Shown here piece after piece: positions 1 to 51,195 of a stretch of 64,000 nt of DNA. Both the position numbers and the translations under genes were made by a program. Location of the stretch: assembly GCA_963920705.1 (NCBI GenBank), contig OY987234.1, positions 23,393,794-23,457,793 on the forward strand, given 5' to 3'. How positions within the stretch are numbered: position 1 is the stretch's first letter; each line of letters begins with the position of its first letter. The notes below the pieces were generated by a model that did no database searches, was not told the origin of the DNA, and worked only from the letters and a program-made list of their open reading frames with translations. This DNA is from Odiellus spinosus. Lineage: Eukaryota > Arthropoda > Arachnida > Opiliones > Phalangiidae.

Positions 1-774
1 GAGCGCGTTAAAAATAAAACAAAACGGAATTTTCGACAAAATATATAATTAAAGGGGTAGTCTTAAAAAAATTGCCAAAATTAATCAATATTGGGAAATA
101 TATATTTTTTTAGTAACCGAGCGACACCCCTGGAACAGAGGTTGGCCACCATAATTGGTTGGAAATTAAGAGCTCCGCCGAAAATATATAATAACAAGGA
201 ACCCGCGGTACTCGAAAAAGACCTCGAAATAAAAGTGAAATTATTGACCAATCATGTCGCCAGTTTTTTCAAATACCTATGGATTATTTTTCTCCAAGAA
301 GCCTATAACGATTAAGAAGTCATTTCCCTTTCGCTTTTACATAACGCAACAATCTACCGGAATCGACAACTGTCGCGAACTTGCAAAAACGAAAGAACAC
401 TCAATAGCCGATCTACTCGAGAAGAAAGGCGCTCAAAATATTGGAGAAATATTTATTATTAATAAAAAAAGGGAGCTTAATTTTCAAAACTCACGCGATA
501 AACTCGAAAGGCCACGATCTAAGCTTTCTTTATTTCATACAGACGACCAAAAAATTAAATGGAAATTATCAACTCGCGAGGGCCTTTTTCGCCATCAAAG
601 CGAAAGTGAAAATTAGTTCCCATAGCCTTTTTCAATCAATTGGAAAAAATCTAGGACTATTAACTATATACTTAATAGATAGGAACGACAGAATAGGGAA
701 TTTATAAGCGTACTATCCTATAACGGCCAAAACAGAGCGAATTTTAGGAATCTACGTTTTATTAGGCCATATTT

Positions 775-1053
775 ATTAGAACAGACTAAAAAATTATCCA
801 TTTGGATTAGAACAGACTAAGCTAAAAATTATCCATTTGGATTAGAACAGACTAAGCTAAAAATTATCCATTTGGATTAGAACAGACTAAGCTAAAAAAT
901 ATCCATTTGGATTAGAACAGACTAAGCTAAAAAATTATCCATTTGGATTAGAACAGACTAAGCTAAAAAGTTATCCATTTGGATTAGAAGAGACTTAGCT
1001 AAAAAATTGTCCATTTCGATAGAACGGACTAAGCTAAAAAATTATCCATTTGG
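775..1053. repeat. 35-bp tandem repeat, about 8 copies
   Basis: A unit of about 35 bp is repeated head to tail roughly eight times. Each copy begins ATTAGAACAGACTAAGCTAA and ends ATCCATTTGG. The inner copies are nearly identical and the outer ones are diverged, with substitutions and single-base indels. No coding sense was seen. Confidence 0.93.
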
Positions 1054-3044
1054 AATTGAAAAGGTTTAAAAAAGTGTTGTCATTATCCCTTTAAACCTGG
1101 TCGCGTTAATGAGTATACTTCCGCTTCTTGAAATAATAATTAAAACGAGAGACGAACTATAAGGCGAGCTTGAATAACATGGGCGTCCAAAAATGATTAT
1201 TTTCTCCTCATCTCGATGAGAAAGAAAATTCCCAGACTTTTCGAGCGAAATTAAAAAATAAACGTGGATTAAATTCGCTCGAATAATCGCTTTTTTTACG
1301 CGCGCGGCACGAAGAATTAAAGGCTTAGCATTCTCGGACATTCGTATTTCGCGAATTTCCCCTTATTAATACGGAAAAGCTTTCGCGTTTCAATGTAGCC
1401 CGAATTACGAGCTACAAAAAAAAACGAATCTACGAATTTGCCGAAATCAAAATTTGGATAACAAAGACTTTAGAAGAAATAACGACAAAGTAAAATTCAA
1501 TATTTCGATTTCGAATAAAAGAAGATAAAGAAATTCGAATGAAAAAGAAAAGAAAAAATCGTCTCGCTAAACCTTAGGCATCGTTCGAATCTATCAAAAA
1601 TGAAAAGTCCCATAAAAACCACAAGGTTTCTTTCAATTTTTTGATACGAATATAATAACTCCGTCCGCCTTAGTTTCAATTCTTGATAGACAGCGTCAAA
1701 GGAAAGACGTTAAGCGGGGGAAAAAAAAAGAGCGGAAGAATAAGGATTAAAGAAAATAATAAGACGATGATAGATTTAAAATAATGGCAAAGTGATGGAG
1801 CTTCGTTTGAAAAATATAAAATGAAATACGGACTCGTTGACGTTATAGACGGAGGAATACGAACGCGCTTAAAAGATTAGAGCCAGAGAGGCACCTACCG
1901 ACTTTCAACTTTGACATTAAGAAACATTTTAAAGGGAGAATGAACCAGAACCAAAAAAAAAAAAATTTACTAAATAATATTTGTATTTTAGGAATTCCTC
2001 GGTAATTACTTTCGCGGATAAATTTAATTATCTAACCTAACCCACATCGCCTGATGAAGATTTCACTCTCGACTTGGTGCTTAACAATTTGGTTTCATTG
2101 GCCCACTAATGTGGATAGGGTGGGGGGGAGAATAGTGCATCCCAATCCAAAACCCAAAAAATGTGAATTTGTGAGACTGTCCCTTTAAGATATCCTTATA
2201 TATAGGTACTCGTATAAAATAAATTTCTTTTTCCATTAAATGAGATTAGTTTGGCTTTGAAGGTTTTTAAGGGTTATTTTATTCGTCCATTTGACAGGCT
2301 CAGGAAGGTTTAGAAAACGAGAAGCTTCTAAGCGGGTAATGACATTCTACAATCATTTTCAGTCTAATGTTTCTCAACCGCGTAAATATGATTTAACTTA
2401 AGTAGAAGTCTTCGCGCTCGAAGCTATAAAACGCTATCAGAAGTAAATAAAATGGAAAAGTAGAAATAAAATTAGTTTCTAAAAAGGCGATTATAAAACG
2501 CCTATTTTTGGCAATCTTTCCGAAATTGCTATTCAATTTCCATTTTAAGGGTCTATCGTACGTCTACAAAATATTTCCTTAAAACCTTTTCTTAAAAGTT
2601 TAGAGGATTTTTGTCGAGTGTCCGCGACACTTTGCCCCGTTTTAGATCCGATTATATTTGGAATGTTTGCCAGAACCTCCCGATTTGTTTCGGATCCCTT
2701 TAGTTAGAAAACGTATTCCCTTCGCTAGCTTGAAAACCTTTTATAAAGCTTAAAATTCTAAGGTAAACTTTCCTCCTCCCGGGGAGAAGGAGAAATAAAG
2801 AGCTAGAACAAAAGGATAAAAGATAAGAGGATTCCCGAAGATTAGAAGATAAAAATCTCGGACTTAACCGCTCCCGCTCGTAATGATATTTACGATAAAA
2901 TTCTCCGGAGAAAGTAAATCTCGTTCTAAAGGAATCGGGAAATCTAGGCCTAGCTGCTTTCAAAATGGTTAATTATTATTAATTTAGTTAGACAGGGTTG
3001 TTCGAAACTCCAAATATATATTAGTTCAAAATATTTACCGCTCA

Positions 3045-3345
3045 AAATCAATCTTAACAACTCGAAAATTTAGAAGGCGATTCGATGGACCATTTAAACC
3101 GAGTTCGCGACCAATTAAAGTTTCTCGCGCAAATCGAGGCGCCCGCTCCATCAAAGCGTAAAGGTGGCAACGTTCGCGCCAAAGCGCGTGCCTCAACCGA
3201 GTTCGCGACCAATTAAAGTTTCTCGCGCCAAAAGCGCGTGCCTCAACTGAGTACGCAGCCACTTAAAAGTTTCTCGCGCCAAAAGCGCGTGCCACTAACA
3301 TCATTTTCAAACGGATTTAGTCCCGAATTAGGCTTAGCGTAAAAT
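3045..3345. repeat. Dispersed repeat D, copy 1, with internal tandem units
   Basis: The segment contains three diverged copies of a block with CCAATTAAAGTTTCTCGCGC, and ends in GAATTAGGCTTAGCGTAAAA. A second genomic copy with the same right end lies at about 26,530-26,672, inside the large PDE4 intron. The element class is unknown. Confidence 0.6.
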
Positions 3346-4221
3346 CTACATTAAATATCTTTTCCGAGTATTAAATCGAACTATTTTATCAGTAATAGCT
3401 AGTAATCGCTTAAAGTGGGTTTATTTACGATTAAAATTGACGTCGTTAATCCCTCGTTTTATCAAATAAATATTAAAGAAGAAATCAATTTTCATCTCTC
3501 ATTTCATATCGGATTAAGCGTTTTGAAATCTTGGCCAGGGATTACCGCAAAGTTTCAAGATGATACGTTGAAATTAATCTAGATAAATACTAGAACTTTC
3601 TAGCGGGCAGCGGCGCTTTCAGTTAGTTATTTGGCTTTAATCTAATAGGGTATATTTTATTTATAGTGAAAGTTCTCTAACCAAAGAGAGTATCAGTTAA
3701 GCCAATTACGATCGGAAGCTGAATATTTAAAGATCTTTTCTATTTAAACCAACATTATTTCCGTATACGTAAATAGAAGTCGGGTGATTATATAAAATGT
3801 TATTAACGAGTGTACGGGTCGATAAACCTTAACCAAAAGCTAATCGATAAATTGGCGCGACTTTTGGGGGGAATGTTCGATCCAAAGTTAAGGAGTCAAT
3901 CCTTTTACGTAAGTAACCAAAATAATTGGATCTTGACAGTTTGAGACGTAGAAATAACGGGCTAAATATCTCGGGGCGTTTCAAATAATCAGAGGAGAAT
4001 AATAATAATATATTACGTATCTCCCTAATACCGCTTTGGGGCCAAAAAACTAAGAATATCAAATATCTAGAAATAAAAGTAGTTGAAGGAAGAAGAGGTC
4101 AAACACGGGTACTTACATATTGGAAGGTCTCGAAGACGCGTGTTCCTCCTTGAAAGTACTTATATCACCGAGTTTAGATTGAGTTTTTAAAAAAAAAAAA
4201 AACGCGACTATTCTTCGTGCC

Positions 4222-4409
4222 ATGTTTGGACTTTATATGGCACTACGCGTTCGGAAACCATTTACGTCATTTTGTGACGCGGTTTTCCGCGAACCTCTCT
4301 TATCAGGACCGCCAATTAAACTTGATCCAGACGTTGATGGCCTCTCGCGGCTCCAGAGGCCAAACGTGACCCTTCGGAGACGTTCTACGATGATATTAAT
4401 ATCCAAGAT
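4222..4409 (+). other. Candidate alternative first exon of PDE4 (weak)
   Basis: An ATG-initiated frame of 62 codons plus 2 nt is noticeably more GC-rich than its surroundings. It ends at a possible donor (AT|GTAAAA) in phase 2, the phase needed to join the UCR1 exon at 14,596. The encoded end would be LRRRSTMILISK followed by I and then FDVG. Vertebrate PDE4 isoforms also have unique first exons spliced at this FDV position. The donor is weak and the protein is not otherwise recognisable, so this is only a candidate. Confidence 0.22.
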
Positions 4410-5930
4410 GTAAAAATAATCGACATCTGAAATTAAAACATAAAAAAATTCATTCGATTTTATAAAACAATAGAGTTTAAAACAAAGCTGGATTCGAATG
4501 AAGAGTTTCAAGTTGGTATTTTTTTTTAATTGATATACTGAATTAAAAAGATAGCTATTATTGGACAATAAAACCGCGATGGCGAGTTATCAAGAAGGCT
4601 ACAAAATCCCCTGGTGGAAATTCTAAGCGACACCCATTTGATTTAAAGGGAAACTAGACTCGAGTCATTTATTTATTCATTTTCCCTTACCTTATATATT
4701 CCCTTTATTAATCGTAAACTGTTCGCGAGCCACGCTACAAAGAGAAGGAAGATAAGTGGGTGGAAGTCATTGTTGATTTAGACTCGGGCCACGCCCCCCC
4801 CCCCCCCCACATTCGAGAACCCCCTAAACTATACTCGATAATCAAAATCAATCGACGAAAGAGCTTAAGGGGGGAGAGGGGGGGAAATTGGGGTAAATAA
4901 ACTTCCAACTAAAGTTAGAAACAATTTGAAATGTTAGCGCGTATTACGCTTTAATCTTGGGAAAATAGAAGAAAAATGGAGGAAAAGGGAAAGTTTTTTT
5001 GGGGTTTTTTGATAACTTAAGCTCGCGTGTCTAACCCCGTTTCGTGACTGGATATTCGATCGCTTTTTTAAATGAAAAAAACTGGATCGGAACACCGCGC
5101 GAGTAGCTCCGTTTATCACCAAAATTCATCCATTTTTTACGCTATTCCTCAAAATTATCGAAACTTAAAAAATAACTCGGTTCGTACGATCTCTTTAAAA
5201 CTAAATTTCAAACGAATTCCGACTATACCTACATCATCGATTTCGTCGAAGACATATAGCTACACCTTTGGAAGGGAAACCAATACGCCTTGGAAAAGCG
5301 TCTTTTCTATTCAAATTGTATTCCTTTCCAAGGATGTAACTGATTATAACACTTATAGGAAATCAAGAGTGGGGTTTTGGGGGGTTTGTGTTTATCAGCC
5401 CCCCCCCCCTCGTCTCCCATTTCCTTTTATTTCACCTTCCCCCCAACATATCTTCTCGAGTATATCTTTGAAAGGACTCTGGGTATGTCAAAACATGGCG
5501 AGAAAAGACCTAAAAGGCGAGGCAGGGGCCCGGGGGGGGGTTCGTCATACCCCCATTTATACGTGGGTGTTACGCAATATATACTGTATATAAACTCTAG
5601 GTAAATCAAGTTGCGCGCGCATCTTTCAATCAAAGGGGGTTTTATCCACCTCTAAATAGCAACCCCAAACCAATTTAAAGCGTTACTGACGTCACTATGA
5701 ATTAGTACAAGGTTTAGAAAAAATAATTAAGCTGATATTTGAAGGTTTTCCAAGCTATTTTCTTATATTTCTCGGTCTAAATTTTGTTATTTTTGATTTT
5801 CATATTGTTCTTGGAACGAATCATTTAACTAAAATAATATTCTAGAATAAATGGCAATTTTCTTGGGATAAAAATGTATACTATTATTATTATTTTTTTT
5901 TATTTTACCTTTGGATAATGATAGTGTATG

Positions 5931-6012
5931 TTTTAAACGAACGGATAATGATCCGAAATGAATTCAGTTTGATCTATCCAATTAATAAAAGTTCTACAAA
6001 CTCCAAACACTA
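5931..6012. repeat. Dispersed repeat E, copy 1
   Basis: This segment of about 80 bp resembles 28,171-28,253. Both start at TTTAAACGAAC and share ATCCAATTAA and ACAAACTCC, ending in AACACTAC. The similarity is partial, and the element borders are uncertain. Confidence 0.5.
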
Positions 6013-9000
6013 CCGATTTCCGCCAAAAATAATATCCATTAACAATACTACTTAAAAAAGGGGGGCCATTTTTCATAAATATCACGTATTGTTGCTTCCA
6101 TAAACAAGAATGGAATTTAAACTTTAAAGTAAATGTCGGATACGAAACTCGATGACGTCATTATCGCTTTAACCACCCAGTCAGTATCTCCAATATAAAT
6201 TGTGAGAAGAGTCCCGCCACGTAACGGTTCAAATTGGCGCTGAATAGTTTGCAATCGGTTTAAGAGGAGGGTTGCGAGGATTGGCTTTCGCGCTCCTCCT
6301 ACAGATATATAGCTAGCTATAGGCGCGAAAAATCGGCGAAGACGAGGACACTCTTTTTCTTTAGTTCGCGGAATCCCGCGAGGTGGATAAGAGTCGAAAA
6401 GTACAGTTTCCGTGGAACGCTTCAATTACTTTTAGGTGTAATTCCCGCGCTTCTTTACGCTCCATTCCAAGTTCCGTTTAGCACAACCCCCCCCCCCCCA
6501 CCCAACGTCGAAATCTTAGCTTTTCAGTTTTCACGCGAAAAGACGCGAAAAGGAAAGAAGTTACTCTCCTCTTCCGCACGAATCCTCTCCATCCAATAAA
6601 ACCGGTTCCCTCCTTACAGTAACGATATTTCGTCCGCGATTCTTTACCCCCCCCCCAACCATCGTTATTTGTCCGTTCGCGTTACAATCGCGAATACAAA
6701 AATTGACGGAAAATATACTCGAAGCGATTTTGATTGTGGTAAAAAAAATGAAATTTAAATTCACGGCATTTATACTAAATTTTTAAAGTACGCTTCGCGA
6801 AATAGAATCGAGAACTGGAACACCCGTAATAACTTCTTCAGACGAGCCGAGTAATCAGAGTGGTTTTAATCAGATTTAACCATCGGTTTCCATAGCCTCC
6901 TCAGTTCTATAAACCCAAAGTTAATCGTGATTAAACCACGGTTAAATCCGATTAAACAGCGGCTAGTTCGCGTTAATCCCGCGTTAAATTAGGTATTATC
7001 CGAGTTTCAAAATGAGGTCTAAATCCATAGACACTTTTGGATCTCTAAAGCATTCGTTCTATCCTCCGTTACATCATTCGTATTCGTTCTCTTATAACGA
7101 ACTATAACGCGTATGAAAGAAAAACTAGGGTTTCCGTTGACGAAGCGAATTCGGAACTACGTAGTCGGATTCGTTTTGAAATTTTGGCTAAAAAGCTAAA
7201 ACTTCTTTACGCTTTCAACGAGAAAAGCGGGGACGTAGATTCGTAGCTCCTAAAATCGCGATTTGAATCCGACTATAGGAACCCCTTTTATATATATTTA
7301 TACTTCGTATCAAATAAAATTTGCAATGAATAATAAACTAAGAATAGATGAATAGAATTATTTATCGAAAGTACGGTGGGAGAGTGTCCTTTCGTAAGGA
7401 ACTTTCGTTCTGAAATGATTATTCTCCGTTCGCTCCGGGACTCTTACCGGGATGAAGGAGATGGAAAAGTTAAGGAGGGTTATCGCGAAGGGATTTCATT
7501 CGCCACGACGATTTTCGCGCCGAAATGACGTCGCGTCGTTCGCGCGCGAAGTGACGCGTTATTTACAATAATCTATCCAATAATTACCTCGTTAATTTGG
7601 TTTTACGACGTTTTAATTATATATCGCCGCGTGGATACTAACCGGACGAACTACAGTTTAGTTTTAGGTTCTTATAATAACTAGATTTCGTAACGAGGGG
7701 ATTAAAAAAAGGCTTAGAATAAATAACGTATAATGATAGATAGGAATAGATCTCGCGGAGAGCCTTAAAAGTAATCTAATTACGTCAAAATCGGATGAGA
7801 AATGAAGAAAGTAAGATATTTTAAAACAAGATTTCATTTTAAAAAATATATTCTAATTCGTTTCGTTTCTTTAACTTAAATTCATTTTTTTTTAAATTAA
7901 TTTGAATTAATAGACTGAGCTAATTTTAAAGCTCACAATGTGATTTAACTTAAATATTAGGTTTCAGGCGGAATATTTCGAGGGAAAATTTACTCCGAAG
8001 ATTTTTTTCCGTTACAAAATTTGAAAAATCTATTAGTTTTATCAATTAATAACTCGTTAGAAGTAAGTAGGCTTATTTTGTAAGCTAGCTAAGTAGGCCT
8101 CGTTGATTTACGCGGAATAATTTCAGATTTTACCGGAATATTTTCGATTTAAAACTTTTCACGGAAAAAAGTTTTTATCGAGTTTGGGAGCGTGACGAAG
8201 AAAGCGAGTCTCGTAAAGAAACGAATAAAAATACTCTCCTCGAATAATAAGAGCTCTTTAAAAGACCGCGCCAAAAGATAACGGTGGAATCGACCAATAA
8301 AAAGCGGTAAAGAAATAAAATGATAAAGATTATTTTCAATAATATTAGAAATATATTTAAATTTAAGTAAATTAATTTATAATAAATAATAATATTTCAT
8401 GTCAATTATATTTCTAACGATCCTTCCGATAACAATACACAAATTTGATTGGTCGATTTCGCGAGATATCAGTGAAGCCTGAACTTTAAGGTAGGAAATA
8501 TTTTTCCTCGTTTAAATTATTCGTACGAAATAAGTTTTAAAGACGTCATTGACGTTCTAGATCAACTCCCCCGTTATTATAATCATTATAATCATCACCG
8601 TCAGATAAAAAAAAAATATTAGAAAATTTTAAGCGACATATATTCGTACGCCCTAGGCACTAGCGTCAATATATAGAAAAGTCTTAAAGGAAAAGCTTCA
8701 ACGAGTAAGTTTTTAACGAATGTTATACGGACAAAATACACCACCGCGTAAAGTATTGGTAGGAGTCTTAGAGTCTACGGGGCTGCCCATACTGAAACTG
8801 TTGGTCCGATCTGGACCAATCACTATCAAAATATAATTTAATTTAATTATAATAGCGTTAATTACTAGGTTTGATAAAAAAAAGCACAGCCACGTTAAAC
8901 GTAATCTAATCTCTCGCGTTTGCCGTTTCCATCCCGCAATTACTTCGCTCTCATTTCGGCGCCAAAAAAAGGGCTCTACAGTTTACAAAAGTTTCTTAAA

Positions 9001-9368
9001 AATAAATAATAAATAAAAAACTTATTGAATCATTTTAATAATCCCTTTAAAATAATTTTCCGTACTTTTTGCCATCTAAAAATGTATCCCATTTCGGTCT
9101 GGTCTTTAACGCGGAAAAGAAGGGCGGGAAATTTTGGCGCCAAAATGATTATAAATTCACGGAGTGCCGCGCGCGTCGATGATGAGGTTGATATTAAAGA
9201 GTTTTTATATTTATAATTTAACTTTTCTATATTAACGAGGTTCGAGGAGTTTCCAAACATCAATTTAAATAGAAATAGAAAATAGGGATGACGAGGTAGT
9301 TTTCATTTATTTATTTTTATTTCGCGAGGTATTGCTTTTTAAATACGATTCTTTGGCAATCGCTCGCG

Positions 9369-10121
9369 TGACGTCAAATCGTAGTCGTTTTCGATACATC
9401 GTGTACTAAATTTCTCTCGAAACAAAGAATGGAAAACGCCGCTTTTAATCGCGCGGATGGCTTTGAAATTCTAGGACAATGACGTAATAAACGATTCAAC
9501 GCCTACCAATTGTCCGCTAACAACTTCTCTTTCCGCAAACGTTCGAAACTAATTTTGAACGGAGACGACGCGGGATATTCTTCGTTCGTCATAAACCGGA
9601 CAATGACGTCACGAACTACGTTAAGGGTAAGCGATCGTGTCCGAAACTACCAACAAATCTTCGAGTTTACTTAATTTAGAACTAAATTGAAAACACGAAG
9701 AATATCGACTGTAAAAGCGACGTCAGCGATAACTTCGTCAACTACGAGTTTTATTCGAATTTTAAACTACTAGAAAACTGATATAAACTAATGACGTCAC
9801 GAACTACGAGTTTAAGTCGCTTTCGACTTAAAACTACTCGAATACATTAAGAATATTCGTTAGAAACAATGCCATCACAAACTACGGGTTTTCTTCAATT
9901 TCAAACTACTTAAAAAGGTGATGAAGTCGCGAACTAAAGAGCGTAGTCGTAAAAGTCAAATTTAAAACTACTCGGAAGCGTCGAATAAAAGTTCTAAACC
10001 GAAATAAACGATGACGTCAAGAAACTACGAGTCTTTCGCGATCAAAAAGGTAACCCAGTTCGTCGAAAAATAATTTTAAAATACGGGTATACGTTCCGTA
10101 TCGGCGTAGACAATGACGTCG
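9369..10121. promoter_or_regulatory. Array of CRE (TGACGTCA) sites upstream of PDE4 exon 1
   Basis: Perfect palindromic cAMP response elements lie at 9369-9376, 9604-9611, 9792-9799 and 10012-10019. One-mismatch versions are at 9480-9487 (TGACGTAA), 9718-9725 (CGACGTCA) and 10114-10121 (TGACGTCG). Several sites sit in a diverged repeated module reading roughly TGACGTCACGAACTACGAG. The array ends about 80 bp before the first PDE4 coding exon. CREB-family factors bind this octamer and are activated by cAMP/PKA, and PDE4 destroys cAMP, so a feedback promoter is an attractive inference. Promoter position and factor binding are not shown by sequence alone. Confidence 0.6.
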
Positions 10122-10203
10122 CGAAACCCGCTTACAAACGAGCTACCGATAAGCCACTTCGCGTTTATCAACGTCAAAACGGATTAAGTTCGGGGAAAAC
10201 AAC

Positions 10204-13200
10204 ATGCTAGGTACTGTTTTAATGTTATTCGTGGCTGTGGCTCGTTACTTGGGAGTTCGAACCGCAGTCGCGCCGGAGTTACTAGTGACGCGATATCACA
10301 ATTTCCCTTACTACCGAACGCGTCGTCGACCCAGTAGTCGCAAGAGCGACCCGTTACCAGTCACCAAGGATAACGCCATGACCGCGGGAACGGGCGGAAG
10401 TACTTCGACGGGGCTGGTGTCCCCGTCATCCGCGCAGTCCGTGTGTATGGTGACCTCGGCGGGTCGGAGGTCATTAGGGTTATTGTATCGGTGTCCGCCG
10501 TTACCCGGTTCCCATCAAACCAGGCAAAGAGCCCTTTCGAGGTGAGACATAACATAGCCGTCTACGTATTGCACGCTTCGAAGTCTCGAGTCTTTGTAAA
10601 GTAAACGAGCAACCCGATTGCGTCTCTACTTTAATTAAAGGAATACTTAAAACGAATTAAATTTAAATAATTTACGAAAGGAATTGACATTAATCGCGCG
10701 TTTCCCCAATCTTTAAATACGTACGGGGATAAATCCAATTTTTAATAGAATATTATTCATTTTTCAACTTCACCCTCCCTTTATTTAAAAGTATTCAAAA
10801 GGATGATTAGAATTGACCAATCAGATCCTTTAGATGATTTACGCAATAGGGGGAAAATATCGGCACGCTCGAAGTATTACATAATATATATTTAAATCAT
10901 TATTTTCATACTGCGTCAAATATGCTAATTTTTCTTGTAATAAAATTAAAGGGACAATATATGAAAATATTATTAATAATAACTTATTACGAAATATTCA
11001 ATACCGTCACAAATAAGGCTTTTTTTAATTATTAGTTACTCCAAATAGCTTCGATATCGACGTTTTCCTACACTAAAATAGAATTTAAATAGCGAAAATT
11101 AACGCCAAGTCTATAATTAGATCTTAAATGAATGAAATTAACTTCGAGTTAAATTTAAATTGGTGTTTAATGGGAATTAGCGTCAACTACTTTATCAAAA
11201 TGAAGCTTTAGCTTTTCTCATTTCGCTTTACAGTCGCGCGTAATCTTCAGCGTTCCCAACCGACAGACAGACGTAGATAATTATTTTGATTTATTGTCGC
11301 AACGTTTAAGTATTCCTTGAAAGTGAAAATGTGTTAATGTATCGTAATAAAAGTGTTAATCGCGCAAATACGTGACGTAATCTGACGTATCTCGATGTGG
11401 TGTATCATTGTTACGCGGGTTTCGTACAACCAGAAGTACATTTTTTATATAAAATTATTGACATCATTATAGCGGGATTGTAAAAACAGCTTGACTACTC
11501 GAGCGAGACGTCAATTTCCATAAAACTTTTTTTAGGCTAGACTAAATTTCAATGAGATATACGCTTAGAAAATTCGAACGTCAGGATATATTATATCATA
11601 AGTAACGTTATAGATAGAAGTACGCTACTTTTCATCGTTTAAGAAGAAATTTTAGAATATAATTGGCCAATGGGATAATATAGAAAAAACCTCTTTAAAA
11701 ACGCAAATATCCGGGAGCCCTAGCTAGATAGAAAAACATCTTTTGAGAAACGAAAGAGGAACAGTTTTCCAAGAGCAAAGTAAATAATCAAATAGATTTT
11801 TTCGCGAGTATACAAGCGGGGAATATCATTTTTTTTAAAGGAATTTACGTACGGCATCTCTTAGGAGTTAAGAGGCGTAATGGACTCCGTTTTAATTGAA
11901 AAACGGGGCTTAGGGGGGGGGGTCTTTTAATTACGGAAAGTAACCCGCCACAATTCGTTCAAATTAATTGAAGCAACGAAACGCTGTTGGGGGAAATAAG
12001 GAGAAACAGTAAGGTCGAGTGAAACTTTCGATAATAATAAAAGAACTTTGCGGGTATTGGCAACTTTACTCGAACACGAGGGATGTTTCAGTTCTACTTT
12101 AATCACGAAAGAAACAATTGTTATTTGGAAGAGAGAAATATAAGATGGAATATATAATACAACCTGCGCTTGACGCTGCGCTAAATAGCGCGTTTAATGC
12201 CAGGATTGACAAAAAAATCGGACTTATTTATATTTAATTTAAATTAATTTAAATGGTCGGTTGGTTAAAATCGGTTGAAACCCGCACCATTACAAGAAGA
12301 AAAATTCAAAAAACAAGTAGTAACTGATTTAAAGGTAGATCTTGACAAAAAAATAACAAATATTTGAAGCAGGAGGCTAAAATAGTCATAATTAAAACAA
12401 AACATATTATTTTCTAATTGAGGGAGTGATAAAAATCGAGCCCAGTTCGGACTTTGCGCGGGTTCAATCAATTTACTCCAACAGAAAGAAGATAGTGAAA
12501 GCGATCTGATACGTGGACGGGGAGTAAGGGGGGGGGGTGGACTAATCCCCGGGATTTATCGGAAAAACTCGAGTCGCGGTTAATCCCACATCGATAGTTC
12601 CGCGAGTATAAGTATACGTTGTCTTCGTAACATCTCTTGGAGACTGAATATCCTAATCGGGTTGAAACGAACTAAGCGAGGGAGAAGAACAAAGCCTAGG
12701 CGAAAGAATATAATCACGAAACGCTATCCACGCGCGCCCAATACACCACAGTCTACACTAACCGGATCGGAAATTTAACTTCTTCCCCCAGAAAAGCAAT
12801 TTCTGGCTTCTCTTTTTCTATTAGTCGAGCTCCCACGAGTGTACAACTTTCATTGGACGTGGTAAAGTTCGAATATAATAATTTTTTCTTATTGTCGGTG
12901 GTAGAAAAGCCCCGACTTTAAGTAGAAACAAAATATATAAAGATTTTAAACGAACTCCGAATGGAATTAGAATAGCATTTCCGTCTATTTTAATGGAGAC
13001 GTTTCATTTGCCCTTTTAAATAAGATCTAACAAAAACGAAAGTCAAAAGGAAAGATCAAAAAAATTAGAATCCTTTGAAGAGAATTTCGCTTTTTTAATG
13101 GAAAAAGCGGACCAATTAGTCGAAAATCTTTAAAACTCGACGGGGGGGGGGGGGCTTTCGAAATTAATTAAAAGGCCTAGAAGCTAGCTTAAACTCTACT

Positions 13201-16200
13201 CGACAGAACACGCTCCAAAAACTGGATTAAAAAACTAAGTCGGGACTTTAAGCTAGGCCTAATTGATCATTTTTCCAATTTTCAGGGAGAGAGAGAGAAA
13301 CCGAGGGGGGAGGGGTGTCTATACGTATATATATATATATCTAACAGTTTGACACGGTTATTTGTTACCCCGGGCCAGATCCAACCAACGAGCCTTTCCA
13401 ATTAGCGAAGCCGCTATGAAATGCCGATAAGAATGGGATTCCAAAGAAAAATAAATTACGACGAGTTTCGGGCCAACAAAATGAAACTCTCCTTAAGGCC
13501 TTTCTTTTTTTAATTACGAACCAAATCGACACGAGAGAATGGAATTATCTTGAATTAAAAAAGTATATTTGAAATATTTCTTCGTTTCAGACTCGTGATC
13601 AGGACCGTGTATTACTAGAAGTCAATAACGTCGCGTTTATCGGGAAAAATAGCCCAATATTTAAATTTAATCGCTTTAATTTGGTTTAATTTAATTTGAA
13701 TTTTCAAGAACTCCAAATGGAAATTGAGTCATATTTTCGGCTTGATCGTTAAAAAACGATTCAATATATCTATACAGATGTCATAGAATAGAAGAAAATT
13801 ACCCTAACAGTAAAAATAAATATTTTATAATAAAGGGGTCCAATTTACGGCGCATTTTCTAGTCAACGCCTGTAGAAGCGTTCCAACCCTCGTACACGCC
13901 TGTTTGCGGAGAAGCTAGCCTCAAAGGGAGAATGCAAACCGATTCCTTATAGTTTAAATAAGCCTCCTAATACACCACGTAACCAACGCGTTGATGTTAT
14001 CTTCTCGGGGAATATGAAAACACGCCACAATTATTATTATTATTATACGCGTAAAGCCCTATTCCAATTACCTAAAGGTCTTAGGACATATTCGTAATTA
14101 TCCAGTCGATTATATTCGAGCTTATAAAGTTGGTTTTGCCCCAATACCGAGTAATCTTGAACGTCAACATTCGAGTCTAGTTCAATCCAAGCTATTCGAG
14201 CGAGTCAACTAACAAGCGTCGCTTCTATAAAGTTCAATCCCTTAATATTGATATTATTAATTAGGCTTAACGTCGTTAGTTCAATATTCTCGATAAGTCG
14301 TTCGAGGTTTACATTCTTGTACGAATATAATTTACCAAAACTGATGTAGTAAAGATAAAGCCTAATTACTCGAAATTATCGGGTTATTCGCGAGCCTATC
14401 TAAGATATTATATCATAGTACGTTTTTAAAAACATTGGGGTTTTCTTACGGTACGGTGGAAGTCTAACAAATCCCAACTATTCCGTATATTCTAAGCCAA
14501 ATATTGATCATATTTAAGCCTACTTAATGTCGTAACTTTACTTAAATTTTAAATTAAATCCTAAACTATAAGCGTTATATGATTTTTGTTTTCAGCTTCG
14601 ATGTCGGGGACGCGGAACACGGTCTTCCGCCGTCGGGACCGGGCATCCACGTGGGTGGGCACCACGTGGGTCACCGCGGACTGTTGGACGCCACCAGTCC
14701 GTCATCGGCGGCGGGATTGGTCCTCCAAGCCTTCCCCCAACGCAGAGAATCCTTCCTATACCGATCGGACAGCGAATTCGAAATGTCACCCAAATCCGTC
14801 TCCAGACACTCTTCCTTCGGCAGCGAGTCGTAAGTACACGATTCATTTCGTACGACTTTTCGTATTCGAGACTTCTACCAGGGCTAAACAGGGGCCTAAG
14901 CTCGAATCTCGTCACAAACGGGGGCCCTTCGTACGTTTATTACCCAAAAATGGGAAAACAATATTTATCGAATGGGGCCCATGGCCCTCTAGGACAACGC
15001 GTCTCTATCTCATCGCCTAATCGCAATCTGGTTTAACGGAAGAAACGCCCTTTTAATTTACTATTTGGTTTACAAAGATATTGAAACGTATCGCGCAAAT
15101 ATTTTGTTTCAATATACTAGATTATGGAAAGGCGTTATTTTTACTAGATTTAGACTGATCTAAAATATTTCCAAGTATATGTCAGCCAACTGCTTTTTGA
15201 CAGAATTGATAGTGACGAAGACTCAAAGAGTAATAAAAATAGTCTATTAAGCTTAAATAGTTCTTCAACATCCAAACTTCGATGTCCAGCCCCGGCCACC
15301 CCATTCGTCGCTATCCATTTTGTAGACAGACAGACGGGAAAATAGTAGAAATGGGTCAATATACGATGTATACAAGTTTTAGCTTCGAGCCAACTTTATC
15401 GAATAATATTCGGTGAACGAAAAATCACGAAACTAGTAGCGACGCCTGGTTGGAAACAATTCAATTAACGAATCCGAGTTTGTTTTATCTGGGTTTAAAT
15501 AGTCTTTTGTTCGTAATTTTTTTGTATCAAACAAAATTCTAGTTTATTATTATTGGTCGCGGAAATCGGGGAATTTATCGAAGGTTGGAAAATAATCGAT
15601 AGTTTTAATCTCCACTCCGAGAAAAAAGCGGTCGATCCAAAGGATATCGATCCGACAAATGGAAGAAACGTTCTATCGAGCGTAGGCTTTTATTATTTAA
15701 ATTAAATCTAAACTTAAATCAAATAATAAAAAATTGACTAAAGTAAATTTAAATAAAATTGGCGTGGGAAAATTAATCGATAAACTAAAGATACGCCAAT
15801 GAAATCAAAATCAACCTCGTATAGAGAGTGCAGGAGTCTAATTTATTAAAAGCTGAAATTTCTGATTCGTCCGTTCTTGTAAATTTTCTCGCTACCCGGA
15901 AAAGTTTCGATTATCCGAAACCCAAAATAATTACCCGTTCACAACCCTAATAAAAATCCACAAGCCTTAGGAAAAGTGGAGCTTTAAGGGTTAAATATCA
16001 TTTACTCGATATTACCCTGGTAATAATAGTAACCACGAATAGTTGGCCCGCCGCTGACAATCTATTTTCATTACCAACCTAGCAATTTGGATGTCGTATA
16101 AATATTCCCGACAGAATATAGGAACGGGTAGAAAGAGGAAAGAGACGAGGTTATCAGCGCGGAACAGAAATTCCTCGAGAACAAGATGTTTAAGATTAAG

Positions 16201-28200: not shown

Positions 28201-31200
28201 ATTAATTAGATGGATATCCAATTAACAGAAATTCGACAAACTCCGAACACTACAATGTCTAGATAAAATAACGAATATAATCCGCTTGCCCAAAATAACG
28301 TATATGTCTATCCCTTTAAATTCAGATTGGAGTTTTCCATTCTGCCGTCCAATATATTCGTGTCTGGAAATTAGGTCACGAGGCCAATATTCGACCACGT
28401 GTCCATTCTCATACATATATATATTCTTTTTCATAAGTAATAATAATATAGAAAATGAAAACAAGTTTTTTTTCCTAATCGATCGGGTTTGGCGTCAATA
28501 TTCCAAACTCAAAATGGTGAACCATAATTATACAAAGGTCAATCGTTGAACTAATCTTGTTTTAATTTAGATTAAATTTAATTCTACAATGTTTAAAAAA
28601 TAAAAACCCCGAGAACTACGTTTCGATTTCTGGATAAAGAATCTCTAGAAATCCAAATCCTTTTTCCTCGTATAAGTGTCCCTCCAATAACTAGGATTAA
28701 TTTTTAATAAGAATGGAAATGGGTTTTTTCGAAAGGTTAAAGGTTCGAGGCGATTTCGACGCCAATGGATTAAATTACGGAAAAGGGTATTTGGGGTTCT
28801 TTATAATGTTACGAAATTATAGGCATCGTAAAAAAACATAATATATAAGACTAGGTAAGACGATTAAAGGTATACTATACTCTAGAAATGACTCGTTTCG
28901 AATAGATTGAGATTTAAAAACAAGCGACGAAAGGTTTCGGGTAATTAGCGGTTAATTAATTAGAAATACACGATTGCTAATCAACCAATGAGAGAGTTGG
29001 TATTTTTGATGGCATCGCCTCAACCGAAAGATATATTAGTTAAATTAGATACATTATTAAAATTTTTCTCGACAGATTTAGGTATTTTAAGGGACCCGGT
29101 GGGAAGAGCTATTTTAATTAATTTGAAATTAAACTTTGATTGGTTTCTTTGGCAGCCACGGCGAAGATCTGATAGTGACGCCATTCGCTCAAGTCCTGGC
29201 CAGCTTGAGAAACGTCCGCAATAATTACATCTACCTGACTCACGTTCAACCCGCCAAGTAAGTAACCAACCCTCAATTATCGAAATTATCAACCGGGAGT
29301 GATTGCAATTTTGGTTGATTTACGGGATATTAACCTTAAATATTAACATTTTACAAAATCCAGTATACTGTAGCTTCGTTTGAAAATATATCTAGGGTAC
29401 TTTAAGGAACAAATTTTAATTTTATTTTTAATTTGAAATTAAAAGCTATTCAATTAAGAATCAATATAGATTTATATTAGCGGCAAAAAAGAATAGATAT
29501 AAAAGAGCGCCTTAAAAAATGAGAACAGATTCTCTTTAAATCCCAAAAGCTAGGTTGTCTTAAATTATACTATCTTATTGGGAACGTTTTCAAGCATTAA
29601 CCTTGACTACGCGGCTCGACTAAAAACGCCTAAGACTAAATGGATCGCCTCATTAAAAGAGATATTGTTCGTAAAAGAAAAATTAAAATTAAATTTAATC
29701 ATTTATCCATTAAGATATAATTTAAAATTAAATTACGAGAGACTGTAGACATTGTTTTAAATTAAACTGTTATTGTAATTAAGATTAGTATTAGTCAATT
29801 TTCCTTTAATAAACAAATTAAGATCGAGAAATAATGGAAACTTTAGCCCGTAAAATCCACCTACATTTACCAAAGGTAAAAGCGCGTTTTCTTAACGATA
29901 AAATTTGCGAAATTCGAGCTTCCACGAGGTCTTTATAAAGATTCGAAGTCGCAATTACACGAAGGTCTTTCGAATAAAAAAAAAAGGAAAATGTCGATAT
30001 CAACACGAGCGTCTATTAAAAATTGTACTTATATTAAGATAGCGAAAGACAGATAATGATAATTCAGTCGTGGCCCGGGGCTATCATTCGCTTCTTAAAA
30101 TTCCCTCTCTCTCTCGATTGTCCCCCTTAGTACTTGGCTATTACGTTCGCGTTTCAGTTGGCAACCGAAAAAAGTCGAGATGGTTGAGAACTTGGAGGAT
30201 TTAAAGGAAAACGGAGGATCCGCGTTTAGATTATTTAATTTTGTACAACGCGTTTGTTTATCCGCGCGTTTAGGTCCAGAAGATCGTCGAGTAACGCGAG
30301 CGCTCAGCAATCGAGCGTCAAACCAATTACGGATGACGCGTACACGAAACTGGCGTTGGACACCCTGGAGGAGTTGGATTGGTGTCTCGATCAGTTGGAA
30401 ACCATTCAATCTCATCGGTCCGTCGGGGACATGGCTTCCAGCAAGGTCGAAACAAAATTACATTTTCATTTCCCCACCTAACATTCCTCATTTGTTTTAA
30501 AGTAGGGACGCGATCAGACTCGATTCGGGCCTCGAGTGTCTCTATCAAATCTGTTTCATTTGACGCGAGATCGCGGATCGAGTCTACTTTAACGTTTTCC
30601 TTCTCACTCTCTCTCTCTCTCTGTCTTATGATTTTATCTCCATCTTATTATCAGTCGAGAGGATGGTTTCATAAACTACTTTTCAAGCTACGAGGTTTAA
30701 ACGTGGCGTATTATTCCGCTAGAGCTTTGGCTAGTTTTGCAAATTTAATTTGAACCGATTACCTGGATTTATTATATTTAATTCGTAGCGGAGTTCCGCT
30801 CGAGTGATAATGAACTTCTCATTTTTCGGCCGATTTATCTTTTCTCTTTAATTTCTTAAATTAGTTCAAAAGAATGCTCAACAAAGAGCTGAGCCATTTC
30901 TCCGAGTCCAAATCGGGTAGTCAAATATCGGAATATATATGCAGCACTTTTCTCGGTAAGTTTTCTTCGTTGTTTTTCTTTTTAATTGACCGTTATCCGC
31001 GTTATAATTTCGAGTTTACGAAATGGCGCTGGTTCCTAATCATTGTAATGCCCTTGAAACGACTTCTATTAAGTTTTAAGAGAAATACGATCGTAAGAAT
31101 GGTCCGCTTAAATATTTTGACCAAATCAAAAATCCTTGAAACACTTAAAAAAAAATCAGGCCATGTTTGAATCTTTTGTAAGTCCAAACGCGATAGCTAA

Positions 31201-34200
31201 CCACGAACGGTTGAAGGCGACAGATTCGTGGATGTCTTAAGTACCGTTAAACCCCTCTTATTTCGTAATTACTCGAGGAATTTTCGTGGAAAAAGATAAT
31301 AGATTACCTCGAGCGACGTGTTAAAGAAAAAAAAGACCTAAATACTATAATAATTCGGTAATTATCGTAATTAAAAGACAATCAGCAAGACGTGGATTTA
31401 ATGAATCTGCGTCCCGACGAAGTAACGAGAGAAGTGGCGGCCCTACCATCGCCCGGCGGTTCCAACTCCACGACGATGGGCGCCCTAGCTTCCAAATTGT
31501 CCTCCATTACGGGACGAACGTCGCCCAGGAGTCGACCGGGGACAACCATGTCACAAATCACGGGAGTCAAGAAGCCCTTGTGTCACACGAACAGTTTGAC
31601 GCAGTTACCCAAGTACGGAGTCGAGTCCTCGCAAGAAACGGATTTAGGGCAGGTCAGTCCGAGACAACAAAAAACCTTTTCCACTCGATGAAATCGTAGT
31701 TTCAGTCAATTCGTATGAGATTTTTTGTTTAATCCTCAGATGCTGGAGGAAATCGATCACTGGGGAGTCGATATCTTCAAAATCCGCGATCTGTCGCTCG
31801 GCAGGCCACTAACGGCCGTCATGTATTCCATATTCAGAGTAAGAATCGATTTTCGAATCGATCGGTTCGTTAATTAAAAGCTTCGAATCGATTCCGACTA
31901 GGAGCGCGATCTTCTAAAAACGTTCAAAATCCCGTCGAAGACTTTTCTAAACTTCCTGATGACCTTGGAGGATCATTACTTAAAGGTGCCGTATCACAAC
32001 AGTACCCACGCCGCCGACGTTTCCCAATCCGTTCACGTTCTATTGCTGTCACCGGCTTTGGACGTAAGTTCGACTAATTACTTTCATCGATCTCCCCCAT
32101 CTCCTAAAATTAGAATATCTTCGAGGCGAAAAGAGGGCCAGTGTCGCCAAAATAAAGGGATAATAACCTCGTCATCTTTCGCTCGTTACTTTTTGTTTTA
32201 AAGGGAAAAACCAGCCAAAATAAATTCAGTCTGAAAAGCGTCTATACCCTCTGTTTCCGATATTTTCGGGTTTATTAAACCTTAATGAAAATTAAGAATT
32301 TAGCTAATTAAGGCTCGTTATGATCAAGAACTAGCGTACTAGTTTCTCGGGACTTTTCCTTTATATTTCCGGACTTTTCGGGTTTTTACGAACTCTCGGT
32401 GGTATTATCCCTTTAATAAATTCAAGAGGAGCGAAACTTTCTAACGAGTTAATAACGCTAGGCTTAATTTTGCGAATTAAAGCTTCGAAAGAAGGAGGAG
32501 GATTCCCTTTTAGATACTAGAGAGTGAGGGATTTAATAAAAATTGCGTCTTCTTTTCGGTGTTGGCCTCGTTGACAGGGAGTCTTCACTGATCTAGAGAT
32601 TCTAACGACGCTATTTGCCGCGGCTATTCACGACGTCGATCACCCGGGAGTCACCAATCAATATCTCATCAACTCCAGTAAGGAATAACATTCGTTAAGA
32701 CTTAATTTAGAATTTATTGAAAGACGAGCCGAACTATACGCGACCGACTTCAATGCCTAATCATATTTCATTCATTTCCCCAATCTAAGATTTATTCAAA
32801 CTCTAGTTCAATTAGGCAAGAATTTAGACAGGAAGGGTTGGACGGGGAAGCGTCACGCGTCTCCTCCTGGTACGTGTGGGGGGGATGACACTCTAAGGTA
32901 AGAGATAGAAGGGTGTGACGTTGGAAGATCAGGACTGTTGGCTCCCTATTGGACAGTGATAGAGTTAGAGGGGGGGGGGCTTTAAACGGACGTATCCCTG
33001 ACGCGATGTCGATGTCGATGTCCTTTTTGAAATCAAGGTCTACGAACTTAAAAACTTCGACCATCCATTGAAACTAACGCTCGTGTCTCAAAAATCTTTA
33101 TCCGATAAGTGTTCGGCTCAAAAAAGACAAATGCAATAAGCGAAACTATAAAACAGGTTCGGAATTGGCCGTAATGTACAACGACGAATCCGTTCTGGAG
33201 AATCATTCGCTGGCGGTGGCGTTTAAACTACTTCAAGACGAGAACTGCAATATCCTGGCTAGCTTGAACAAGAAACAAACATTGACGCTCAGGAAGATGG
33301 CCATTGACATGGTCGGTTAATAATACGACTATTTAACTAGCCACGATCTTAATAGATAAAGCGAAAACAGTCCATTCTTGTTAGTTCTTACTATAGTCTC
33401 CGTTCGCGGAGGCTTACGAACGCCAGTCTCGTTATTCGTCAATATCTATTAAGATACGATGTCCGGAAGTTAGTCCTAGGTTTATACGCCAGGAATCATT
33501 AGATCAAACTAATTCCTCTTGGCGGTTCTGTTTTTACGCGCAGGTCCTGGCGACGGATATGTCCAAACACATGACGCTACTCGCGGACCTGAAGACGATG
33601 GTGGAGACGAAGAAGGTAGCTGGATCGGGAGTGGTACTACTAGACAATTACACGGAACGCATCCAGGTAGGTAAATTACGTCACAACGAGAGGACGAGGG
33701 CGTCCGCGAGAATCAGGCGCCTTCAAAATGTCCGAGTAATCTTATCTCCGCCATGGTAAACAGGTGCTTCAAAACATGATTCACTGCGCCGATCTGAGCA
33801 ATCCGACAAAGCCATTGGATTTGTACAGGCGATGGGTGGATTTTATCATGGAGGAGTTCTTCCAGCAAGGTGATAAGGAGAGGGAGCTCGGTCTCGACAT
33901 CAGTCCCATGTGCGACAGACATTCGGCCACCATCGAGAAATCGCAGGTAAAACAAGGTCTTCTCGTTCTTTAAATCGTCTTTATCGCTCGAAAACAATCG
34001 TAGCTTCATTCTCCCTCGAACCAACTCGTCTTATCATTGTACAAATAGAGAGGCTGACTCCGTAGACGGAATATTAATTCTAATAGTCTCTCGGGATCAA
34101 ATTGCAATCGGTTGAAATCCTAGTTTCCCAGAGACAATATTCAAATTAAGCTTTTCAAATCCTTCTTGAAATTCAGATTTCCCAATTACCGCCCAATCCT

Positions 34201-34656
34201 TCTCAAAATCCAGCGTCTTTAATTCCCAAAATCCATCGTCCAATCCTTCTTGAAATCGCATTTTTCAAATCCCATATAGTATATTGTCCGATGAAATTAA
34301 TTTACATCGTTTCGATCCAGGTTGGTTTCATCGACTACATTATCCATCCACTGTGGGAAACGTGGGCGGACTTGGTCCATCCGGACGCCCAAGAGATCCT
34401 GGACACGTTGGAAGAGAATCGAGACTGGTACCAGAACATGATTCCTACGAGTCCCACGAGCAGGAGTCAAGAATTACTCGAAGATCCGTCGGAACTTCAA
34501 GAAGAAGACGAAGACGATAACACGCCGCCGGAAGACGACGATCGAGAGGACGTTTCCGGTCGAAGATTAGCCGCGGCGGCCGAGAAAATTAAGTTTCAAA
34601 TAACGATAGAAGAACCGGAAGACGACGAGGACGCGGAATCGGCGGGCGAGAATTAA
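10204..34656 (+). CDS. PDE4: cAMP-specific 3',5'-cyclic phosphodiesterase 4, long form (dunce orthologue)
   Basis: It hydrolyses cAMP to AMP and shapes PKA signalling. Thirteen exons: 10204-10541, 14596-14829, 29156-29257, 30274-30445, 30865-30955, 31390-31652, 31740-31838, 31902-32063, 32578-32677, 33157-33311, 33544-33666, 33764-33946 and 34321-34656. All phases agree and give 785 residues. UCR1 (about 138-215) keeps the PKA site QRRESF (Ser165) and [19 protein letters not shown]2 (about 246-312) keeps [16 protein letters not shown]. The catalytic domain keeps [10 protein letters not shown] (464-473), HDVDHPG metal ligands (505-506), HCADLSNP (D623) and the purine-selective Gln at 674 ([11 protein letters not shown]). 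The C-terminus has a Ser-Pro and KFQI where mammals have KFQF. Exon 1 opens with a hydrophobic stretch and has no earlier in-frame ATG after a stop at 10,150. Weak points are the exon 1 start, the exon 4 donor (GTCGAA) and the exon 6 acceptor. All catalytic residues checked are intact. Confidence 0.95.
14596..14829 (+). other. PDE4: PDE4 UCR1 exon with PKA phosphorylation site
   Basis: This exon starts FDVGDAEHG, the usual point where isoform-specific PDE4 N-termini join the common body. It contains [20 protein letters not shown], the conserved UCR1 segment whose Ser is phosphorylated by PKA in mammalian long forms. The donor is a perfect GTAAGT at 14,830. It enters and leaves in phase 2. Confidence 0.93.
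19796..20126. mobile_element. hAT-type MITE, CAGGGTTGCCA family, diverged copy
   Basis: The right end reads TGTGGCAACCCTG. The left end is a degenerate version near 19,797 (GGTTTGCGGCACAC). The interior shares with the copy at 25,396-25,762 the runs TTTCCCTGACCTTTTCCAAC and GTCAGCTGAGAATCTTTTCC. No transposase is encoded. The assignment to hAT rests on the known widespread MITEs with this terminal repeat. Confidence 0.65.
25396..25762. mobile_element. hAT-type MITE with CAGGGTTGCCA terminal inverted repeats
   Basis: The element begins CAGGGTTGCCAT and ends GTGGCAACCCTG, an imperfect inverted repeat pair about 365 bp apart. Its interior repeats the phrase TTCCCTGACTTT several times, a hallmark of these non-autonomous elements in many animals. 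I saw no clear 8-bp target duplication, so insertion borders may be eroded. Confidence 0.75.
26530..26672. repeat. Dispersed repeat D, copy 2
   Basis: It shares AACCAATTAAAG, GTGGCAACG and CGCGCCAAA blocks and the right end GAATTAGGCTTAGCGTAAAA with 3045-3345. No coding content was seen. Confidence 0.6.
27559..27692 (+). other. Candidate alternative first exon of PDE4
   Basis: An ATG-initiated frame of 44 codons plus 2 nt starts [20 protein letters not shown] and ends VDEVFNP before a donor AG|GTATTT in phase 2. That phase joins correctly to the exon at 29,156 ([12 protein letters not shown]), which would give a PDE4 isoform with a truncated UCR1 lacking the PKA site. Composition looks coding, with mixed polar and aromatic residues and no low-complexity run. 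PDE4 genes in flies and mammals are known to use several internal promoters. No independent support is available. Confidence 0.33.
27806..28176. mobile_element. TTAA-bounded MITE, family A, copy 1
   Basis: The 371-bp element is bounded by TTAA on both sides and has terminal inverted repeats AGGGAGAATGC and GCATTCTCCCT. Inside are further inverted repeats: GGCTTAGCTGG with CCAGCTAAGCC, TCGTGGAGAT with ATCTCCACGA, and CAATGACATTGATC with GATCAATGTCATTG. The RNA or single strand could therefore fold back over much of its length. A second copy lies at 61,816-62,130. The TTAA target suggests a piggyBac-type mobiliser, but no transposase is present. Confidence 0.82.
28173..28253. repeat. Dispersed repeat E, copy 2
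   Basis: Starting at the TTAA that ends the family A MITE, this segment resembles 5931-6012 (TTTAAACGAAC at the start, ACAAACTCC and AACACTAC near the end). Confidence 0.45.
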
Positions 34657-51171: not shown

Positions 51172-51195
51172 TCTAAATTGAATCCAATTGCGAAT

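What the first reader, a model, noticed from the sequence alone, without database searches (positions are those of the whole stretch)
9369..10121. CRE array at the head of a cAMP phosphodiesterase gene
Four perfect TGACGTCA octamers and three one-mismatch versions lie within 750 bp, ending about 80 bp before the first PDE4 coding exon. Two more perfect sites are at 5687 and 6153. In the rest of the window I found only three (19,649; 48,347; 57,820). By base composition fewer than one would be expected in 64 kb. cAMP would switch on its own phosphodiesterase through CREB. The sites ride on a diverged repeat, so repeat expansion may have built the array.
Basis: partly seen in the sequence, partly recalled or inferred. 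Interest (0 to 1): 0.72.

Follow-up and report, generated by a model that had tools for sequence, protein, structure and literature searches.

The report
Decayed CRE repeats before a PDE4 gene
Just before the start of an arthropod gene for a cAMP-destroying enzyme lies an old, worn repeat with several perfect cAMP-response sites that could let cAMP limit itself, but this genome is unusually rich in that site, so a regulatory role is unproven.

Summary
Exon 10204-10541 joins a UCR1 exon in frame, so this is a long-form PDE4. The genome encodes a CREB-type KID.

TGACGTCA occurs 21,887 times in this 443-Mb genome, 3.2 per 64 kb, about 6.8 times the dinucleotide expectation. It recurs in unrelated satellites and at the ends of a dispersed inverted-repeat element. 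Only the cluster stands out.

The array is a single-copy, strongly diverged tandem repeat. Its unit is ACAATGACGTCACGAACTACG plus, often, a second AACTAC box.

Most likely it is a promoter-proximal CREB/ATF platform giving cAMP feedback onto PDE4 (0.4). A neutral decayed repeat is almost as likely (0.38). Transcription start, binding and conservation could not be tested. cAMP-sensitive PDE4 promoters are already known in mammals, chiefly for short forms.

The parts
9369..10187 (+). diverged tandem array with CRE and AACTAC boxes (end taken as the end of the last unit's short frame)
   Evidence: single copy in the genome
9369..9376 (.). perfect TGACGTCA
9480..9487 (.). TGACGTAA, one mismatch
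9604..9611 (.). perfect TGACGTCA
9718..9725 (.). CGACGTCA, one mismatch
9792..9799 (.). perfect TGACGTCA
10012..10019 (.). perfect TGACGTCA
10114..10121 (.). TGACGTCG, one mismatch
9614..10028 (+). span of ten AACTAC boxes, starting at 9614, 9645, 9740, 9765, 9802, 9832, 9880, 9904, 9966, 10023; none on the - strand in 9360-10160
5687..5694 (.). outlying perfect TGACGTCA, not part of the repeat
6153..6160 (.). outlying perfect TGACGTCA, not part of the repeat
10204..10541 (+). first PDE4 coding exon, 338 nt, GT donor at 10542
   Evidence: no Pfam match of its own
14596..14829 (+). PDE4 UCR1 exon, first part (end inferred from the GTAAGT donor)
29133..34653 (+). frames with UCR1 second part (29133-29258), UCR2 (30239-30478), catalytic domain and C-terminus (31371-34653); frame limits, not exon limits

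Best explanation
The array is an old, decayed tandem repeat directly upstream of the first coding exon of a long-form PDE4 gene. Its units carry a CRE-bearing box (ACAATGACGTCACGAACTACG) and often a second AACTAC box. It most likely works as promoter-proximal DNA that binds CREB/ATF-type bZIP dimers, with an unknown partner at AACTAC, so that sustained cAMP raises PDE4 transcription and damps itself. Shown: the sites, the repeat, the PDE4 exon and its in-frame join, the single-copy nature of the array, a CREB-type KID in the genome. Inferred: that transcription starts in or just after the array, that CREB binds it, and that PDE4 responds to cAMP.
For: Four perfect and three near-perfect CREs in 753 bp, ending 82 bases before the PDE4 ATG. 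Exon 1 joins UCR1 in frame. No ATG lies between the last unit's own ATG (10113) and 10204, while seven lie in 9470-10203: a start just after the array would give a clean leader, one upstream would not (inference). In the seven ATG-context units the octamer columns are kept in 5-7 of 7 rows, the distant flanks mostly in 3-4 of 7. The region is single copy at E<=0.001. A KID is encoded (60 bits). Six of the seven ORFs of at least 80 aa upstream of the array match no Pfam family, so no competing gene was recognised. cAMP-sensitive promoters are known for mammalian PDE4 short forms (PMC1892053, passages).
Against: TGACGTCA is common in this genome (21,887) and recurs in unrelated tandem repeats. 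The octamer is not clearly better kept than its neighbours in the box (CGAA columns 5,5,7,7 of 7), and anchoring the rows on the box inflates conservation. Only 4 of 9 aligned units keep a perfect octamer. Fruit fly CREs show no bias to transcription starts (PMC1796609). In mammals PDE4 long forms are usually constitutive (PMC1892053), and this exon heads a long form. No expression, binding or cross-species data.
Confidence: 0.4

Rival explanations
1. Neutral relic: a minisatellite that happened to carry TGACGTCA arose beside PDE4 and has decayed. The octamers are leftovers and have no cAMP role.
For: Genome about 6.8-fold rich in the octamer. Octamer-bearing tandem repeats of unrelated sequence are frequent; octamer pairs exceed those of the composition-matched TCACGTGA 786 to 155. 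Tandem repeats are abundant in random stretches. Box-to-box spacers of five units are homologous (0 of 1000 shuffles as alike). Column conservation does not single out the octamer. Another cluster of four lies within an RdRP gene with no obvious promoter role.
Against: The array is old (48% mean column identity) yet four octamers are intact and the block ACAATGACGTCACGAA has sharper conservation than its flanks. It is strand-consistent and placed directly before the coding start of a cAMP enzyme. Other octamer arrays seen are young and regular.
Confidence: 0.38
2. A functional array for another bZIP factor (ATF-2-like, CrebA-like, Jun/ATF), so that PDE4 is controlled by stress or development rather than by cAMP.
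For: TGACGTCA is bound by several bZIP families, and the A before and C/T after it suit ATF-type sites (recalled, no call).
Against: No direct test; a CREB-type KID is present and the gene is a cAMP enzyme.
Confidence: 0.12
3. The array lies in a long 5' leader and acts at translation: each unit supplies an ATG (seven short frames from 9479 to 10113) and represses PDE4 translation.
For: All seven ATGs of 9470-10203 are in the repeat units, six of them followed by short frames of 14-24 codons and one by a 2-codon frame, five beginning MTS or MKS-R-like. Direction is constant.
Against: ATG number is ordinary (7 against a mean of 6.7 per 734 bp). Codons 2-4 show 4 synonymous and 6 non-synonymous changes with 37% synonymous expected, i.e. 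no peptide constraint. Whether the stretch is transcribed is unknown.
Confidence: 0.07

Closest known systems
cAMP-sensitive intronic promoters of mammalian PDE4B and PDE4D short forms
   Same: Same enzyme family; a cAMP-sensitive promoter giving slow negative feedback (PMC1892053, passages)
   Different: Here the array heads an exon joined to UCR1, a long form. Mammalian long forms are 'usually constitutive', though cAMP-elevating agents are reported to induce PDE4D3, a long form (that label recalled), in contractile vascular cells (PMC10707411, passage). Tandem-repeat origin; cAMP response untested
Canonical CRE/CREB promoters
   Same: Perfect palindromic octamers near a first coding exon
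   Different: Start site unknown; no CRE positional bias in fruit fly (PMC1796609); degenerate array with an AACTAC box
Octamer-bearing satellites and minisatellites of the same genome
   Same: TGACGTCA once per tandem unit
   Different: Those listed look regular, with units of about 19-33 bp or about 193 bp (read from the printed heads of matches); the PDE4 array is diverged, single copy and irregular, with ATG-to-ATG spacings of 52-188 bp

Membership tests
cAMP-inducible PDE4 promoter | belongs to a PDE4 gene | tested here: met
   UCR1, UCR2 and catalytic frames; C-terminal frame best matches PDE4B/PDE4D structures; exon 1 joins in frame
cAMP-inducible PDE4 promoter | CRE octamers near the first exon | tested here: met
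cAMP-inducible PDE4 promoter (mammalian short-form type) | drives a short form lacking UCR1 | tested here: not met
   exon 1 joins a UCR1 exon in frame and phase; no transcript data
cAMP-inducible PDE4 promoter | transcription starts beside the CREs | not testable with these tools
   no transcript data held
cAMP-inducible PDE4 promoter | transcription rises with cAMP through CREB | not testable with these tools
   no expression or binding data; a CREB-type KID is encoded
functional CRE | octamer density above this genome's own background | tested here: met
   4 in 651 bp against 1 per 20 kb genome-wide; sites are clumped genome-wide, so the weight is limited
functional CRE | conserved at this place in related species | not testable with these tools
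   the genome has no relatives in the held set (stated)
functional CRE | octamer better kept than the rest of its repeat unit | tested here: inconclusive
   octamer columns 5-7 of 7, neighbours CGAA 5,5,7,7 of 7, AACTACG columns 4-7 of 7 ungapped, flanks mostly 3-4 of 7; rows anchored on the box
tandem repeat / minisatellite | homologous head-to-tail units | tested here: met
   box-to-box spacers of five units more alike than in 1000 of 1000 letter shuffles; but the stretch after box 2 is not (152 of 1000 as good), TRF does not report the array, and self-alignment with both boxes masked is at background
mobile-element copy | further copies in the genome | tested here: not met
   1 match, itself, at E<=0.001 (the search skips very common words)
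uORF array with conserved peptide | synonymous changes favoured | tested here: not met
   4 synonymous to 6 non-synonymous, 37% synonymous expected

The most novel reading that the evidence does not exclude
In this arthropod a genome-wide excess of TGACGTCA, carried by satellites and by a dispersed inverted-repeat element whose ends hold a CRE next to ETS- and YY1-like motifs, supplied raw material for cAMP control. At PDE4 an old tandem expansion of a CRE plus AACTAC unit was kept as an autoregulatory promoter of the long form, a feedback that mammals place chiefly on short forms.
Probability: 0.15. Interest if true: 0.6.

Novelty: new member of a known kind. Interest (0 to 1): 0.33.

Why it matters
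If the array responds to cAMP, transcriptional feedback of cAMP on PDE4 would have been built by repeat expansion at a long form in an arthropod. If it does not, the case still warns that counting CRE octamers against base composition misleads in this genome, which holds nearly seven times the expected number, part of them in satellites and a dispersed element. CRE-based target prediction here needs the genomic rate as its null.

Tried and rejected
Composition as null: set aside for the genome rate. Array as a mobile-element copy: rejected, single copy. CRE+AACTAC as a genome-wide composite element: not supported; TGACGTCAN{1,4}AACTAC gives 28 matches, 3 of them in the array, against about 39 expected from motif densities, though the backwards control gives only 3. 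The consensus unit with up to 3 mismatches gives 33 places, 2 of them in the array, backwards control 12, and no second array among them. uORF peptide: not supported.

TGACGTCA as a favoured seed of tandem repeats: unsettled. Pairs exceed those of TCACGTGA 786 to 155, but the backwards word ACTGCAGT, with 2,125 sites, has 6 pairs where its own Poisson rate gives 0.3, about 19-fold clumping against about 23-fold for TGACGTCA (arithmetic). Among the TRF arrays of period 10 or more in L010-L029 and the window only one unit array was flagged with the full octamer (L023:9615-9650).

Tandem homology: the best self-alignment scores 43 against at most 32 in 60 shuffles; masking CREs alone leaves 43, masking both boxes drops it to 20. 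Of eight same-length control stretches of the window one scores higher (58, from 25001, which holds a tandem repeat) and seven score 20-33. The targeted spacer test is positive, with units picked by eye; the stretch after box 2 is not (152 of 1000 shuffles as good).

Competing upstream gene: none recognised; six of the seven ORFs of at least 80 aa in 1-9368 were tested, and the one ORF of at least 90 aa in L013 was not. The sigma-70 promoter scan is uninformative for an animal. Rfam found nothing in the window. Species: not identified; mitochondrial COX1, 7tm_7 receptor and RdRP suggest an arthropod, my inference; the PDB comparison of COX1 did not help.

Literature, listings only unless said: TGACGTCA with dunce, 0 papers; TGACGTCA with satellite and tandem repeat, 1, off topic by its title; TGACGTCA with transposable element, CREB and insect, 1, on Drosophila feeding; further listings. 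The passages shown from two reviews gave no PDE4 CRE, although mentions a PDE3A promoter variant regulated by cAMP-PKA; one search gave none.

Full report
Observation. The window holds nine perfect TGACGTCA at the coordinates given and 34 sites within one mismatch against 12.2 in shuffles. Four perfect (9369, 9604, 9792, 10012) and three one-mismatch sites (9480, 9718, 10114) lie in 753 bp; 82 bases separate the last from the ATG at 10204.

The gene. The frame from 10204 runs to 10541 and ends in phase 2 before a GT donor. A UCR1 exon begins at 14596 after a CAG acceptor, and the join reads in frame into FDVGDAEHG...[19 protein letters not shown]. Frames with the rest of UCR1, UCR2 and the catalytic domain follow to 34653, and the C-terminal frame matches PDE4B and PDE4D structures (best E 1e-24). 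Exon 1 itself matches no Pfam family, so its coding status rests on the open frame, the phase match and an upstream in-frame stop at 10150. The predicted transcript is a long form. That RRES is the PKA site of UCR1 is recalled; that PKA phosphorylation of UCR1 activates long forms as feedback is in PMC10707411 (passages).

Background of the octamer. The genome (443 Mb, 286 contigs) has 21,887 TGACGTCA against 2,125 of the backwards word. Fifteen random 10-kb stretches hold 8 in 150 kb against 1.1 by dinucleotides; the genome rate is 7.4 per 150 kb, an excess of about 6.8-fold. At the genome rate 64 kb should hold 3.2, and nine or more has P = 0.005. Outside the array the window has five. Poisson would give 0.11 clusters of four in 651 bp genome-wide, but sites are clumped: 786 pairs 173-203 bp apart against 33.5. 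Places listed there (a capped list) include repeats with periods of about 32 and 193 bp that carry one octamer per unit. A triple pattern built on the array's own spacings finds 51 forward and 55 reverse matches; among the listed ones most lie in minisatellites of about 19-33 bp with unrelated sequences, and two are the array itself. TCACGTGA, of the same composition and similar density in the sample (7 against 8 per 150 kb), gives 155 pairs, many of the listed ones from the 193-bp satellite. The backwards word is clumped to a similar degree relative to its own rate (6 pairs from 2,125 sites; arithmetic), so clumping as such is not special to this octamer. The 100 sites listed include one other cluster of four in 632 bp; it lies within an RdRP gene and shows no tandem repeat beyond one 14-nt pair.

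Anatomy of the array. Nine stretches, anchored by eye, align at 48% mean column identity. The shared core is ACAATGACGTCACGAACTACG; four units add a second AACTAC 24-31 bp after the first (positions). AACTAC occurs 10 times on + and 0 on - in 9360-10160, against 31 and 14 in the whole window. Spacers between the two boxes of five units are more alike than in 1000 of 1000 letter shuffles, while the stretch after the second box is not (152 of 1000 as good). With both boxes masked the whole-region self-alignment is at background, and TRF does not report the array. So the array is a very diverged repeat, demonstrable in part. The region is single copy at E<=0.001, and the CRE+AACTAC composite is not above density expectation elsewhere (28 including 3 in the array, about 39 expected).

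Mechanism. The most likely reading is a promoter-proximal bZIP platform. Between the last unit's ATG and the start codon there is no further ATG, while seven lie inside units; this fits a start in or after the last unit better than one upstream, which is inference. A CREB-type KID is encoded. Six of seven upstream ORFs of at least 80 aa have no Pfam match. Against it: the octamer is abundant and satellite-borne here, unit conservation does not single out the octamer, and fruit fly CREs show no bias to starts.

Rivals. A neutral decayed minisatellite is nearly as likely. Another bZIP factor could own the sites. A uORF array is possible in anatomy, since all seven ATGs of 9470-10203 are in units, but codon changes show no peptide constraint (4 synonymous, 6 non-synonymous, 37% synonymous expected) and ATG number is ordinary (7 against 6.7).

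Known systems. [quoted passage not shown] PMC10707411 (passage) reports that cAMP-elevating agents induce PDE4D3 in contractile vascular cells; PDE4D3 is a long form (recalled), so induction of a long form would not be without precedent. The feedback idea is thus known; the arthropod host, the array and its repeat origin would be the new part. TGACGTCA with dunce returned no paper.

Verdict. A real and unusual cluster with a plausible but untested interpretation. The more general fact is the genome-wide abundance of the octamer.

Noticed in passing
L012:3859-4307; genome-wide in G000: A dispersed inverted-repeat element whose ends read TGACGTCAGCCGGAAGTTACC followed in L012 by ...GCCATCTT, placing a CRE beside ETS-like and YY1-like motifs (motif names recalled). 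The 21-mer occurs 199 times with up to one mismatch; many listed ends pair 400-450 bp apart.
   Followed up: partly
G000 C2:23616-28299, C2:34447709-34465030, C1:35157098-35417684: A 193-bp satellite carrying TGACGTCA and TCACGTGA in its monomer lies mostly within 0.3 Mb of the ends of two large contigs (another copy at C2:1043307), perhaps subtelomeric.
   Followed up: no
L010:3963-6718: A eukaryotic RNA-dependent RNA polymerase gene (PF05183, best E 1e-42) whose span holds four CRE octamers in 632 bp.
   Followed up: partly
8951-8967 and 9132-9148: An inverted pair of 17-nt arms around GGCGCC palindromes (TTTTGGCGCCAAAA at the second; E2F-like, recalled), 164 bp apart, just upstream of the array. 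TGGCGCCA is 4 in the window against 1 in 150 kb of random sequence.
   Followed up: no
window 1-64000: CpG observed/expected is 1.59 in the window and 2.39 in 9001-10000, against 0.98 in 150 kb of random sequence.
   Followed up: partly
G000 C17: Several COX1 fragments with TGA and TAG codons in a large contig look like nuclear copies of mitochondrial DNA; C286 looks like the mitochondrion.
   Followed up: no
48572-50113: A 513-codon frame ending in a long Ser/Gly/Lys/Asp-rich repeat, over a 42-bp tandem array at 49295-49827; its start looks lectin-like (my reading, untested) next to a C-type lectin frame at 46494-46949.
   Followed up: no
51178-55960: Neighbouring chemosensory-receptor-like frames: 51924-52586 matches 7tm_7 (E 3e-14); 51178-51978 and 54686-55465 gave no Pfam match.
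   Followed up: partly
L016, L019, L025: Of 15 random stretches, L016 and L025 are almost wholly one 23-bp minisatellite on opposite strands and half of L019 is an 18-bp one: the genome is very rich in tandem repeats.
   Followed up: no
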